This document shows, one piece after another, positions 2,452-6,664 of a DNA stretch of 64,000 nucleotides. Every line of letters starts with the position of its first letter. Positions within the stretch are counted from its first letter, which is position 1. This DNA is from Bacteroidia bacterium. GTDB taxonomy: Bacteria; Bacteroidota; Bacteroidia; Cytophagales; Cyclobacteriaceae. Both the position numbers and the translations under genes were made by a program. The DNA lies in NCBI GenBank assembly GCA_030425425.1, contig JAUIAO010000004.1, positions 1-64,000 on the forward strand, given 5' to 3'. The notes beneath the pieces were generated by a model. It was given only the letters and a program-made list of their open reading frames with translations. It searched no databases and was not told the origin of the DNA.

Positions 2452-2688
2452 GCTCTACAACATTGTGTATGGACGCATGTGCGAACTGAGCATTTAGCCA
2501 GCTTCGGTGGAACTCGACCGTGAATCTGCCTCTGAGGAAACTGCACTGCTTTCTACCAATTTCAGTTCGCAGGAGTTTTTATCTTCTGAACGCACTGCCA
2601 CTTGATACTTTGGAAGCACCGGCAGATTTCACTATTTTGCTGCTATTAGCCAGTGGGGAGCACACAGCGCCATACACGGGCGTTGAGA
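2452..2688 (+). repeat. attC-like site 2 (long, ~237 bp)
   Basis: GCTCTACAAC ATTGTGTATGG ... CCATACACGGGC GTTGAG; inner stem GTGAATCTGCC / GGCAGATTTCAC with one unpaired base. Confidence 0.85.
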
Positions 2689-2694
2689 GCCATT

Positions 2695-3276
2695 ATGCGA
2701 TACCTAATACTTTTATTGTTAACATTCAACTCACTGAACTACTTGCTAGCATGTAGTTGTGACCGCATAGATTCTTCGAACGTCCAAGATTGGATTGCTG
2801 AAGCAGATTTTGTCGTTGAAGGACAATACATTACGAATCTCAATCACAACTCAGAGGTAAGAGAACGATGGAACTCAGAAAATAAAGGATTTGATGTTCT
2901 ATTCCTGGTAACTCGAGTAATTAAAGGTTCAATTTCTAAAGACACAATTGCGATAGTGCAATTTGAAAACGGAAGCTGTTTAACCCCAATCGAACAGGAT
3001 AATAAATACATTATTTTAGGTCAACAGGTGCTTAGATTTAAGTGTCTTGATATTGAGAAACCAACTAAGGACTCATCGGGAGAGTACCCACCAACTGATT
3101 GGTTTACACCACCTAGTTATGTCGACGAACAGGGAACGATGAACTACAATTACTGTGATGAATCCAAATCGAACTACTGGGACAAGACTGTGGATAACTA
3201 TCTAACTTTATATACAAGCTATTGTACTACCTATCTTGCTAGCTCAAGAACTGGAAAACTCATAGGGCTAAAATAA
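2695..3276 (+). CDS. Secreted/lipoprotein-type hypothetical, cysteine-containing (cassette 3)
   Basis: MRYLILLLLTFNSLNYLLACSCDR signal/lipobox-like start; the ORF ends 2 nt before the RYYYAAC-type core at 3279. Confidence 0.65.
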   Translation: MRYLILLLLTFNSLNYLLACSCDRIDSSNVQDWIAEADFVVEGQYITNLNHNSEVRERWNSENKGFDVLFLVTRVIKGSISKDTIAIVQFENGSCLTPIEQDNKYIILGQQVLRFKCLDIEKPTKDSSGEYPPTDWFTPPSYVDEQGTMNYNYCDESKSNYWDKTVDNYLTLYTSYCTTYLASSRTGKLIGLK

Positions 3277-3278
3277 AC

Positions 3279-3513
3279 GGCTCTCAACAATATGTATAAG
3301 GCATGTGCTTTTGTGCTTTTTGCAAACGGCATTGAGACTTGACCGTGAGTCTGCCACCGAGAAAGATTTGTTCTGTTTAGAAACTCCAGCTCTCGGGATT
3401 TTTTCACTTTCACTACGCACTGCTTTCTGCAAACTTTGGAAGCACCGGCAGACTTCACTACTTTAGTGCTGTCCATAAAGTGAGAGCACACGCCTCATAC
3501 ATGGTCGTTAGAG
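3279..3513 (+). repeat. attC-like site 3 (long)
   Basis: GGCTCTCAAC AAT ATGTATAAGGCATGTGC pairs with GCACACGCCTCATACAT GGTC GTTAGAG; inner GTGAGTCTGCC / GGCAGACTTCAC. Confidence 0.88.
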
Positions 3514-3526
3514 AGCATTATCAGCA

Positions 3527-4111
3527 GTGACGAAAGAACAATTTACAGACTACTGGAACCGAACCTACCCGAACTCTTTACCCATCGGACATGAACTGAA
3601 GCATGTTTTCAACGAACGCTGGTTCAGAATTCACAGTCTCCCTGAATCCAAGAGATACGCTGAAACTCCTGAAGAAGAGTCTATAATCTTAGAACGACAG
3701 AACGAACTTGTTGACGACATTTTCGGGAAAGGTCAAGAATTCTACGTCCTTATTGGCCTTTACAGCACCGACTTAACTGAACAACTGAGCATAGATGAAC
3801 TTGATTGGGAGACATTCCAACATGTCATGGATATTCCACTACATGAAGTCCGCCCAGAGGAACATGAAGGTGAACCTTACTTTTATCAGATCTTTATTTC
3901 CAAAGCAACTTGGAGGATTAACGAGCATGATGAACTTCTTATGAAACTTGCCAACGATGAAGTAAGAGCAACCTTTGTATGTCCGAGCAATAACCGAATT
4001 ATCAACCCATATGATGGAGGTGTTGACGTCATTTTGGAGAACGAACCAACTATGCAAGCCTATAAACAACGCTATTCTAACTGGCTTTCTCCGAGGAAAG
4101 ACGGAATGTAA
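3527..4111 (+). CDS. DUF3885-like protein (cassette 4)
   Basis: YWNRTYPNSLPIGHELKHVFNERWFRIHSLPESKRYAETPEEE matches remembered DUF3885 sequences. Confidence 0.7.
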   Translation: MTKEQFTDYWNRTYPNSLPIGHELKHVFNERWFRIHSLPESKRYAETPEEESIILERQNELVDDIFGKGQEFYVLIGLYSTDLTEQLSIDELDWETFQHVMDIPLHEVRPEEHEGEPYFYQIFISKATWRINEHDELLMKLANDEVRATFVCPSNNRIINPYDGGVDVILENEPTMQAYKQRYSNWLSPRKDGM

Positions 4112-4112
4112 A

Positions 4113-4366
4113 GCTCTCTAACAGACGATGATGGCGCATGGCCTTACTTAGCCTTCTGCCGAATGTCTGCAAAACATCCCGCTTATCAGCCGCCAGGAAA
4201 GTGAAGTGCTTTCTACCAGCTTCTGATCGTGGGAGTTTTTTATCTGGAATGGTGCAGTGCGTATCTGATACTTTGGAAGCACCCCCTTGCCGGGCGCGAC
4301 AGATTTCATTAGTTTTATCAGAATTTGCTAAGCTCGGGGCGCACTCCTGCTAGCTTAGCGTTATCT
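4113..4366 (+). repeat. attC-like site 4 (long, with a small internal insertion)
   Basis: GCTCTCTAAC...GTTATCTGG; shared block ACTTTGGAAGCACC is followed by extra CCCTTGCCGGGCGCGA before CAGATTTCA. Confidence 0.78.
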
Positions 4367-4863: not shown

Positions 4864-5008
4864 AACACAAACGATGGTCGAACGAATGAGAGAAATTCGT
4901 GATCAGGTTAGTCATGACATCATGAACATGACAGCAGCAGAGGAACGTGCATATTTAACCGAACAACTCAAAAAGCTCAAATCCAAACGAGAAATGGCGA
5001 ACAGGTAA
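4847..5008 (+). CDS. Small antitoxin-like protein (53 aa) overlapping the toxin 3' end
   Basis: MKTATRTQTMVERMREIRDQVSHDIMNMTAAEERAYLTEQLKKLKSKREMANR*; overlaps the toxin frame by 17 nt; resembles small ORFs paired with PIN toxins (MREIRD..). Absent from the ORF track because of its size. Confidence 0.65.
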   Translation: MKTATRTQTMVERMREIRDQVSHDIMNMTAAEERAYLTEQLKKLKSKREMANR

Positions 5009-5250
5009 CAGGCCTAGAACGAATGCGCCAACTGCCACTTTACATACTTCAGTGCGAACCTCACCGAGCCGCGTATGCCATGAATCAGCCGCCGAGAAAG
5101 GTCAGTGCTTTCTACTTGGCGCATCTCGCAGGATTTTTCATCTTTCTGAACGCAGTACATTTTACCAACTTTGTGAGCACCGGCAGGACTTCACTATTTT
5201 ACCACATAAGAGCAGCTGGCGGGCATACAATCGCTATCTAAACGATACAT
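5002..5250 (+). repeat. attC-like site 5 (long, degenerate cores)
   Basis: CAGGTAAC...; shares GTCAGTGCTTTCTAC, TTTCTGAACGCAGT, GAGCACCGGCAGGACTTCACTATTTT and GGCGGGCATACAATCGCTA with the other sites. Confidence 0.75.
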
Positions 5251-5270
5251 ATCATATATTTCGGATCACT

Positions 5271-5342
5271 TACGTATATTTTCAGCTCATATCGTATCAA
5301 ATATGTTGTTTCATTATCGTATATTTACGAATCATATCGTAT
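5271..5342. promoter_or_regulatory. Operator-like phased repeat upstream of the Fic gene
   Basis: TACGTAT at 5271 and ATCGTAT at 5291, 5316, 5336 (spacing 20/25/20); TCATATCGTATCA exactly repeated at 5287 and 5332; ends 9 nt before the ATG. Confidence 0.6.
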
Positions 5343-5351
5343 CATTTTTAG

Positions 5352-6386
5352 ATGAAAGTATACAATTTTGATTTAGATTTTGACTGGAAACTGGTCAATA
5401 ATATTAGCAAACTGGATCGGTTTGATGCTTCATGGAATTCAATAGAAAAAAAGGAAGGTCAAAGTCTTAAACAGCTAAAGTCCATGGCAACTGTCAGAAG
5501 TGTCGGTGCATCAACGCGTATTGAAGGATCTAAGATGAGTGATGAAGAGGTTGATATTTTATTACGTAATCTTTCAATAGAAAAATTAACTGAAAGAGAT
5601 AAGCAAGAGGTCGCTGGATATTTCGAAGCTTTAGATATTATTTCAGAATCATACAACCACATACGAATAACTGAAAGCGAAATAAAAAACCTTCACAATA
5701 TCCTTTTAAAGTATAGCGAAAAAGATAAATGGCATCAAGGTGATTACAAACAGCACAGCAATAATGTAGAAGCAACTTTACCTGATGGCACCAAACAACT
5801 GATTTTTGAGACCACTCCTCCTGGATTTGAAACAGATGATGCAATGAGATCTCTAGTAGAATGGTACAACGAAGATACTCAGACACACCAACTCGTCAAA
5901 AGTGCTCTCTTCTCCTACGAATTTGTTTCCATTCACCCTTTTCAAGATGGTAATGGGAGACTGAGCAGATTAATAGCCAGTCTACTACTTTTAAAAGGTG
6001 GGTATAGATGGATTCAGTATGTCAGTTTCGAACATGAAATTGAAAGTCGAAAACCCGAATATTACCGAGAATTAAGAAGCTGTCAAGCTCAAAGGCCAAA
6101 TGAGAATGTAACAACTTGGATCAATTTCTTTTTCAGTGCTTTAATGAACATTCAAGAACAGCTATTAGCTAAACTGGAACAAACCGGAACAACTTCAAAA
6201 TTGTCCCCTCGAGAAAAGTCAATATTGACATTTATTTCAGACCATGCAGGATGCAAATCAGGAGATATTGCTAAAAATCTTGATATACCAAGTCCTACTG
6301 TCAAACGTGTCCTTAGTGATCTGCTAAGTTTGAGCTTAATCGAACGTCATGGGACCGGCCCGGGAACTAATTATTCTATACTTTAA
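5352..6386 (+). CDS. Fic/DOC family protein with C-terminal winged-helix-like region (cassette 6)
   Basis: Fic motif HPFQDGNGRLSRL; N-terminal SVGASTRIEGSKMSDEEVD inhibitory-like motif; C-terminal KSGDIAKNLDIPSPTVKRVLSDLLSLSLIERHGTG HTH-like. Confidence 0.93.
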   Translation: MKVYNFDLDFDWKLVNNISKLDRFDASWNSIEKKEGQSLKQLKSMATVRSVGASTRIEGSKMSDEEVDILLRNLSIEKLTERDKQEVAGYFEALDIISESYNHIRITESEIKNLHNILLKYSEKDKWHQGDYKQHSNNVEATLPDGTKQLIFETTPPGFETDDAMRSLVEWYNEDTQTHQLVKSALFSYEFVSIHPFQDGNGRLSRLIASLLLLKGGYRWIQYVSFEHEIESRKPEYYRELRSCQAQRPNENVTTWINFFFSALMNIQEQLLAKLEQTGTTSKLSPREKSILTFISDHAGCKSGDIAKNLDIPSPTVKRVLSDLLSLSLIERHGTGPGTNYSIL

Positions 6387-6390
6387 AAAC

Positions 6391-6664
6391 GATATGTAAA
6401 CAACTAAGGCTCTGTGTGGTCGGTACGACCCAGCATAGAGCCTTAGTAGAACGAAACCACGGTTGATCTGAGATTAGATAGTATGGGCTTCACCATGAAA
6501 TCTGCCCCTGGGAAATGTCAGTGCTTTCTACATACTTCTGTTCGCAGGGTTTTTTCTCTTTCTGAACGCAGTGGTTATATGATACTTTGGAAGCACCGGC
6601 TGATTTCACTAGATTAGTGCTTTTAGCAGCTGGCGGGCATACAATCGCTAGCTGAACATTAGCA
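6391..6664 (+). repeat. attC-like site 6 (long, contains an extra hairpin)
   Basis: GATATGTAAACAAC...; shared GTCAGTGCTTTCTACATACTTC, TTTCTGAACGCAGTGG, ACTTTGGAAGCACCGGC, GATTTCACTA, GGCGGGCATACAATCGCTAGCTGAACATTAGC. Confidence 0.75.
6404..6446. repeat. Inverted repeat/hairpin
   Basis: CTAAGGCTCT GTGTGGTCGGTACGACCCAGCAT AGAGCCTTAG: 10-bp perfect outer arms plus an inner imperfect stem. Confidence 0.8.

What the first reader, a model, noticed from the sequence alone, without database searches (positions are those of the whole stretch)
2452..6664. A family of oversized attC-like sites (~235-275 bp) conserved in structure as well as sequence
Five inter-cassette spacers share blocks (GTCAGTGCTTTCTAC, TTTCTGAACGCAGT, ACTTTGGAAGCACCGGCAGATTTCACTA) and are long imperfect palindromes. 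In site 3, ATGTATAAGGCATGTGC pairs with GCACACGCCTCATACAT. One inner stem covaries: GTGAATCTGCC/GGCAGATTTCAC in site 2 becomes GTGAGTCTGCC/GGCAGACTTCAC in site 3, an A-T to G-C swap keeping a single unpaired base, as with attC extrahelical bases. Known attC sites are mostly about 60-150 bp, and common detection tools cap size near 200 bp as I recall, so these could be missed by default scans.
Basis: partly seen in the sequence, partly recalled or inferred. Interest (0 to 1): 0.85.

Follow-up and report, generated by a model that had tools for sequence, protein, structure and literature searches.

The report
Bacteroidota integron lacking the IntI domain
The oversized hairpin sites belong to an array of movable gene cassettes next to a recombinase that lacks the part thought essential for integrons; the same arrangement is common across Bacteroidota and carries known resistance genes such as tet(X2), aadS and ere(D).

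Summary
Five spacers (S2-S6) share a sequence family found in all six genomes of the genus (Marinoscillum). Only S2 and S3 are intact imperfect palindromes; S4-S6 have mismatched or replaced outer arms. Across 42 aligned copies the outer and inner stems covary strongly.

The context goes further. Window bases 1-53 are the 3' end of a tyrosine recombinase gene (whole on contig C91), followed by an attI-like hairpin and seven cassettes. Each cassette's end is the reverse complement of its own start; this pairing is the single best of 5040 assignments. Identical units elsewhere have exactly these G|TT borders, so the units move.

The recombinase lacks the ~40-residue IntI-specific insertion (I2) said to be necessary for cassette recombination. 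Canonical IntI occurs in 1 of 297 Bacteroidia genomes; this I2-less type in 135 of 297. In an independent set, 30 of 44 have a cassette directly downstream (control 3.3%). Site length varies by genome (about 40-260 nt), so size is not the key oddity. In Bacteroides, aadS, ere(D) and tet(X2) are perfect cassettes of this kind.

Strand use and activity are inferred, not shown.

The parts
1..53 (+). 3' end and stop codon of the I2-less tyrosine recombinase gene (the rest lies beyond the contig end)
   Evidence: Window 1-114 is identical to contig C91, where the 293-aa gene is whole (L031 2104-2985, minus strand).
60..107 (+). attI-like head GGTATATTTGAATATCGGGTAACGCGCATAGTGCGCGTTGCATTAATG, with hairpin AACGCGCA/TGCGCGTT; crossover expected after G107
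   Evidence: Same head, or one with at most 3 substitutions in its 33-nt core, at the start of arrays on C91, C113 and twice on C93; hairpin just before G|TT in relatives.
108..1813 (+). cassette c1, PIN-like domain protein (TTGGGCATA ... TATGCCCAA|C)
   Evidence: Own ends 9/9 complementary; Pfam PIN_8 E=4e-46.
1814..1909 (+). attC-like site S1 (96 nt between cassette ends)
   Evidence: Arms AAAATGAATATGCG / CGCATACTCATTTT; bottom-strand z = -1.9.
1910..2460 (+). cassette c2, small hydrophobic protein, no Pfam match
   Evidence: Own ends 8/9; no Pfam.
2461..2682 (+). large attC-like site S2 (222 nt), intact arms
   Evidence: Bottom-strand z = -3.2; own arms pair at -17.6 kcal/mol.
2683..3287 (+). 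cassette c3, 193-aa protein, no Pfam match
   Evidence: Own ends 9/9.
3288..3507 (+). large attC-like site S3 (220 nt), intact arms
   Evidence: Bottom-strand z = -4.4; own arms -18.1 kcal/mol.
3508..4121 (+). cassette c4, DUF3885 protein
   Evidence: Own ends 9/9; Pfam E=5e-35.
4122..4360 (+). large attC-like site S4 (239 nt), chimeric arms plus a short CCCCTTGCCGGGC insert
   Evidence: Arms of different subtypes, -7.0 kcal/mol, z = +0.5.
4361..5008 (+). cassette c5, PIN-domain gene apparently split by a frameshift (4409-4612 and 4585-4863)
   Evidence: Own ends 6/9; PIN_12 E=0.001, below its cut-off.
5009..5243 (+). large attC-like site S5 (235 nt), mismatched arms
   Evidence: z = +1.1; arms -8.8 kcal/mol.
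5244..6400 (+). cassette c6, Fic/DOC protein (start degenerate: CGATACATAT in place of GTT...)
   Evidence: Own ends 7/9; Fic E=4e-18.
6401..6658 (+). large attC-like site S6 (258 nt), left arm replaced by a 45-nt hairpin
6659..7189 (+). cassette c7, carboxypeptidase-regulatory-like domain protein; its own attC is lost or degenerate
   Evidence: Own ends 8/9; Pfam E=1.5e-14.

Best explanation
The region is the start of a chromosomal cassette platform that works like an integron. A tyrosine recombinase encoded just upstream, in the same orientation, exchanges DNA at a hairpin-bearing attI-like site directly after its stop codon and at attC-like sites that end each cassette. A cassette is the unit TT...AAC + folded site + G; as a circle its two ends join to form the full hairpin site, which the recombinase cuts at G|TT. 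The 220-258 nt sites are this genus's attC. Shown here: the anatomy, the end-matching rule, the covariation, the exact unit borders of moved copies, the coupling to the recombinase across the phylum, and the absence of the IntI-specific domain. Inferred: that the adjacent recombinase does the exchange, that the folded bottom strand is the substrate, and that S2 and S3 are active while S4-S6 are not.
For: (1) Own-start/own-end pairing in the window: 56 of 63 positions, best of 5040 assignments, against 20 of 54 across the sites. (2) Identical units with the predicted borders: in G048 a 708-nt unit, 99.7% identical at two places, starts at TTAGC and ends after its own attC at CG|TT; in G041 a 547-nt unit, 100% identical in two distant arrays; in the own genome a 1075-nt cassette, 98% identical, lies behind a head on C114 and behind a large attC on C119. 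(3) Window 1-114 identical to the C91 recombinase end plus head. (4) Recombinase directly followed by a first cassette in 25 of 41 loci (control 11.8%) and, in an independent set, 30 of 44 (control 3.3%), with a significant hairpin before G|TT, p = 3e-7. (5) Covariation of outer and inner stems. (6) Intact sites fold more stably as bottom than top strand, p = 0.0016. (7) Site lengths nearly uniform in several arrays (112-115 in G035, 77-82 in G041), and one 222-nt site of the window's family sits inside G048's array of mostly shorter sites. (8) Best fold matches of the recombinase are XerA and VchIntIA, the latter TM 0.71.
Against: No recombination was observed. The window's recombinase is cut off by the contig end, so the copy that served this array is known only by identity to C91. 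The class-wide count of recombinase homologs includes some of other kinds (for example IS91-associated), and 14 of 44 loci showed no first cassette, although only about 1.5 kb downstream was held for most. Folding of intact large sites is modest (mean z -2.0, 12 of 31 below -2). Published work holds that the missing I2 domain is necessary for cassette capture (PMC7790495).
Confidence: 0.87

Rival explanations
1. It is an ordinary integrase-less cluster of attC sites (CALIN) mobilised by a canonical IntI located elsewhere, and the adjacent recombinase is unrelated.
For: Several arrays in the genome (C113, C93) have a head but no recombinase beside it.
Against: No canonical IntI in the own genome: 17 matches, none over the cut-off. 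Only 1 of 297 Bacteroidia genomes has one, while the arrays lie directly behind the I2-less recombinase and the window itself begins inside that gene.
Confidence: 0.04
2. Cassettes are moved by the host XerC/XerD acting on folded sites, as for integrative elements exploiting Xer; the adjacent recombinase plays another part.
For: XerC and XerD are present, and Xer hijacking by folded single-stranded phage DNA is known (CTXphi; PMC4792948).
Against: Xer genes are universal, but arrays sit behind one particular recombinase with an attI-like hairpin. That recombinase groups apart from XerC/D with full support.
Confidence: 0.05
3. The large sites are conserved non-recombinogenic structures (terminators or structured RNAs), and arrays change only by homologous recombination between repeats.
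For: S4-S6 and 15 of 46 copies in all have mismatched arms, a pattern expected from homologous recombination inside the conserved core.
Against: Homologous recombination in the cores would not give unit borders exactly at G|TT with different neighbours, nor own-end matching across whole cassettes. No Rfam family matches the window.
Confidence: 0.04

Closest known systems
Sedentary chromosomal integrons with IntI (VchIntIA, IntI1)
   Same: Cassettes with one or few genes on one strand, RYYYAAC/GTTRRRY-type cores, G|TT border, folded attC-like sites conserved within a genome, a tyrosine recombinase with the same N-terminal domain (Phage_int_SAM_4), an attI-like site beside it.
   Different: The recombinase has 72 residues between the GKG and HxLRH motifs instead of 113-114: the IntI-specific insertion with helix I2 is absent. 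attI is a hairpin directly behind the stop codon. Sites in this genus are 220-258 nt.
Treponema integrons
   Different: Treponema uses a canonical IntI (as stated there; not re-tested here).
IS91-associated tyrosine recombinases and XerA-like recombinases (NF040815 'site-specific tyrosine recombinase/integron integrase')
   Same: Same domain make-up and no I2; NCBI's automatic name already covers this family.
   Different: IS91-associated members precede an IS91 transposase, not a cassette array.
'xerD' gene beside tet(X3), tet(X5) and tet(X14)
   Same: The one beside tet(X3) is an I2-less recombinase of this group by spacing and tree, with an attI-like hairpin and G|TTATGTGCC before tet(X3).
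   Different: Truncated and now on Acinetobacter plasmids beside ISCR2-type elements; the association was reported as unexplained (PMC7473080). The copies beside tet(X5) and tet(X14) were not examined.

Membership tests
Integron (IntI type) | Integrase with the IntI-specific additional domain (helix I2) | tested here: not met
   72-77 residues between GKG and HxLRH in the array-associated recombinases, 113-114 in IntI, 76-80 in XerC/D; TIGR02249 193.6 and 199.3 bits in two pieces, cut-off 265.
Integron (IntI type) | attI site adjacent to the integrase where cassettes enter | tested here: met
   First cassette within 220 nt of the stop codon in 25/41 and 30/44 loci against 11.8% and 3.3% in controls; here attI is a hairpin, unlike canonical attI as far as I know.
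Integron (IntI type) | Cassettes whose two ends form one site (R''/R' matched within the cassette), border G|TT | tested here: met
   Window: best of 5040 assignments; chained cassettes 103 against 17 in reversed sequence; exact unit borders.
Integron (IntI type) | attC folds into a hairpin with covarying arms | tested here: met
   intact in 31 of 46 copies.
Integron (IntI type) | Recombination of the bottom strand only | tested here: inconclusive
   Bottom strand folds slightly more stably (p = 0.0016); strand use itself needs an assay.
Integron (IntI type) | attC length within the published 55-141 nt | tested here: not met
   220-258 nt here; other genomes with the same system have about 41-122 nt (PMC7370490).
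Integron (IntI type) | Cassette excision and integration catalysed by the integrase | not testable with these tools
   Needs a bench assay.
CALIN | attC cluster with no integrase nearby | tested here: not met
   Window bases 1-53 are the recombinase 3' end.
Xer-exploiting integrative element | Dependence on host XerC/XerD and dif-like sites | not tested
   No dif search was made; the phylogeny puts the recombinase outside XerC/D.

The most novel reading that the evidence does not exclude
Cassette recombination on folded sites works in nature without the I2 domain: the Bacteroidota recombinases are a living I2-less integron lineage, close to the stock from which IntI arose, and they are the unrecognised vehicle of resistance genes such as tet(X), aadS and ere(D).
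Probability: 0.4. Interest if true: 0.95.

Novelty: new variant of a known kind. Interest (0 to 1): 0.86.

Why it matters
Published work holds that helix I2 is necessary for cassette capture, unique to IntI, and that intermediates between Xer-like enzymes and IntI are lacking (PMC7790495, PMC4792948). A widespread group of recombinases without I2 that sit on attI-like and attC-like sites makes that question directly testable. Because searches for integrons are built on the IntI-specific domain (PMC8352920, PMC9668308), such platforms would go unseen: 135 of 297 Bacteroidia genomes hold this recombinase type and 1 holds canonical IntI. It also offers a mechanism for the mobility of aadS, ere(D) and tet(X2) in Bacteroides and for the unexplained 'xerD' next to tet(X) variants, which matters for tracing how last-resort tetracycline resistance left Bacteroidota.

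Tried and rejected
Rfam on the window: nothing, so not a described RNA. RNAalifold on the MAFFT alignment gave a weak consensus (-2.1 kcal/mol) because bulges shift the register between subtypes; I used arm-against-arm permutation and named-structure pair counts instead. GTT...AAC pair search with k = 8-9 alone has too many chance hits in ordinary DNA, so I used chaining, permutation, and distance to the recombinase stop. The strand of the cassette rule cannot be read from that search because the pattern is self-complementary. An edge test over all BLAST matches was weak overall (8 of 53 left edges at GTT, 3% expected) because most matches were recombinase genes or chromosomal neighbours; individual unit copies were then read base by base. 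A covariance model of the sites was not built. Considered and dropped: a described structured RNA for the 'TCGAGTAGACGG' junctions (no Rfam match).
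Full report
WHAT THE WINDOW HOLDS. The window is the first 64 kb of contig C11 of a 5.85-Mb draft genome. The finding's five spacers exist as described. They belong to a dispersed family with copies on contigs C114, C113, C93, C119, C29 and C63 of the same genome and in all five other genus genomes searched, with scattered copies in five more genomes of the family or order.

STRUCTURE. With DNA parameters S2 and S3 fold far below dinucleotide-shuffled controls, S6 weakly, S4 and S5 not at all. 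The reason is visible in the arms: outer stems come in several subtypes (for example TGTGTATGG.CGCATGTGC / GCACACAGCGCCATACA; CGCTGATCGGGCATATGTC / GGACATACGCCCGATAGCTG; CACTATCGGTTATGTGCC / GGGCACACAAACCGATAGT), and in S4-S6 the two arms come from different subtypes or one is replaced. Over 46 copies each left arm pairs with its own right arm at -13.9 kcal/mol on average against -8.7 with others (20000 permutations, none as low). The result holds after removing near-duplicates, for outer and inner stems alike. On the 42-row alignment 22 named pairs are formed in 81% of cells against 27-43% when slid, with 138 double-change cells against 57 in shuffles (the shuffle control does not correct for relatedness, which is why the dereplicated permutation is given as well). 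Of 46 copies, 31 have intact outer arms; these fold with mean z -2.0 and slightly better as bottom strand (p = 0.0016), the other 15 with mean z -0.3.

CASSETTES. Seven units fill 108-7189. Each starts TT (c6 degenerate) and ends with the reverse complement of its own start followed by C, with up to three mismatches in nine. The own pairing scores 56 of 63, the single best of all 5040 assignments; the two half-boxes that flank one site match poorly (20 of 54). This is the mark of a unit that circularises through its ends, as integron cassettes do, and it is not expected of a simple repeat array. Contents are typical of cassettes: two PIN-domain proteins, Fic, DUF3885, a carboxypeptidase-regulatory-like protein, and small unknowns.

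PLATFORM. Window bases 1-114 are identical to contig C91, where they are the last 53 bases of a 293-codon tyrosine recombinase gene and a 48-nt head with the hairpin AACGCGCA/TGCGCGTT ending in ATG|TT. The C11 contig begins inside a second copy of that gene, or at an assembly branch behind a single copy; the data held cannot tell. A second recombinase on C10 is followed 48 nt after its stop by a cassette GTTGAGCGC...GCGCTCAAC. XerC and XerD are separate genes.

HOW GENERAL. In relatives the recombinase is followed by a hairpin and a first cassette in 25 of 41 loci (control windows 11.8%). In a second, independent set from across the phylum it is 30 of 44 (control 3.3%); the 54 nt before G|TT fold at -6.2 against -3.2 kcal/mol in controls, p = 3e-7. 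Site length is nearly constant within several arrays: 112-115 nt in G035, 77-82 in G041, 118-120 in G006; G048 has mostly 41-68 nt but one 222-nt site that is a copy of the window's family. That cassette has evidently crossed families with its large site. The recombinase type (E <= 1e-55) is in 135 of 297 Bacteroidia genomes and 81 of 155 genera; canonical IntI in 1 of 297. The first figure is an upper bound for platforms, since some relatives are IS91-associated or of other kinds. In the whole phylum sample IntI is common (110 of 399), but all save one of those genomes lie outside the class of the window.

MOBILITY. Two places in G048 share a 708-nt unit at 99.7%, beginning at TTAGCTTTT and ending at ...CTAATCG just before different TT starts. 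Two arrays in G041, about 670 kb apart, share a 547-nt unit at 100% with the same kind of ends. In the own genome a 1075-nt cassette lies behind a head on C114 and behind a large site on C119, where its 3' end is truncated. The borders are those predicted, to the base.

THE RECOMBINASE. It scores highest with NCBIfam NF040815 (222-226 bits, cut-off 220) and well below the integron cut-off of TIGR02249 (194-199 bits in two pieces, cut-off 265). The gap is real: 72 residues (77 in three) lie between GKG and HxLRH, as against 113-114 in IntI and 76-80 in XerC/D. A predicted structure (pLDDT 83) matches XerA and VchIntIA best by E-value. In a 64-row tree IntI is one clade (100/100) that joins IS91-associated recombinases (94/91); these lie beside the Bacteroidota recombinases, and all are separated from XerC/D (100/100). 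Deep forks are weak and IntI sampling narrow, so descent of IntI from this stock is suggested, not shown.

RESISTANCE GENES. On a Bacteroides thetaiotaomicron plasmid aadS (GTTGTACGAC...GTCGTACAAC), ere(D) (GTTATGTGAA...TTCACATAAC) and tet(X2) (GTTATGTGCC...GGCACATAAC) are perfect units with strongly folding sites (z -4.1, -7.7, -7.2). On Acinetobacter plasmids the 'xerD' before tet(X3) is a truncated member of this recombinase group, followed by a hairpin and G|TTATGTGCC; DNA similarity between the tet(X2) and tet(X3) regions begins exactly at that G. Earlier authors noted the xerD-tet(X) adjacency and left its meaning open (PMC7473080). A Phocaeicola massiliensis plasmid holds a whole recombinase, hairpin and matched cassette.

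LITERATURE. IntI is defined by the extra domain (PMC9668308, PMC8352920, PMC7790495). IntegronFinder 2 reports one complete integron in Bacteroidetes proper, in Salinibacter (PMC9024848). One classification of tyrosine recombinases notes that the insertion is 'not fully conserved' in its integron-like subgroup (PMC8138268). I found no description of I2-less platforms with cassettes in the open-access library; subscription papers and preprints were not searchable, so prior description cannot be excluded.

VERDICT. The larger result is an integron-like system with a recombinase that fails the defining domain test for IntI yet shows every other tested anatomical mark except size. It works like an integron; by the domain criterion it is not an IntI integron. 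Activity and strand use remain to be shown at the bench.

Noticed in passing
L156 3339-7346 (Bacteroides thetaiotaomicron plasmid NZ_CP072225): aadS, ere(D) and tet(X2) are three consecutive perfectly end-matched cassettes with folded sites of about 120-190 nt.
   Followed up: partly
L154 4043-6150 (Acinetobacter indicus plasmid NZ_CP045132): The 'xerD' fragment beside tet(X3) is an I2-less recombinase of this group followed by an attI-like hairpin and G|TTATGTGCC.
   Followed up: partly
L157 about 3660-3720 and L026 reverse strand about 1888: In tet(X4) of E. coli and in a cassette on own contig C113 the cassette 3' end is cut at ...TAA and continues with the same sequence TCGAGTAGACGGC; the same junction occurs in L102 and L109. 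Nature of the inserted element unknown.
   Followed up: partly
window 4283-4297; L085; L075: Some sites carry a short insert CCCCTTGCCGGGC(GC), in L085 twice in tandem: a small mobile or slipped element inside attC-like sites.
   Followed up: no
window 7190-7340 and L024 about 7113-7145: Two arrays end with similar sequence (CCTYTAGCTTCACCWCATTGAATTATTC); downstream in the window is a degenerate piece of a site (CCTTTCTGGATTTAGGCCC...GTGCATTGTGGATACT).
   Followed up: no
L031 3061-3459 and L030 8069-8461: Both recombinase genes have a divergent neighbour coding a short zinc-ribbon-like protein; the L031 copy has no NCBIfam or Pfam match.
   Followed up: no
L031 about 2240-2260 (recombinase C91, HSFATGPTIRHLL): A 5-residue insertion (GPTIR) sits right after HSFAT in the C91 recombinase near the active site; absent in C10. 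May affect activity.
   Followed up: no
L133 661-720 and 1711-1747: Two abiF RNA matches (RF03085) on the Phocaeicola plasmid that carries the recombinase.
   Followed up: no
L026 reverse strand about 1262-1756 and L024 4557-5051: Two heads without a recombinase share about 495 nt of upstream sequence at 88% identity, including GAGCCATGCGCAGCGCAGGGCGGTTTCGGAGA-type repeats: solo heads seem to have been duplicated.
   Followed up: no
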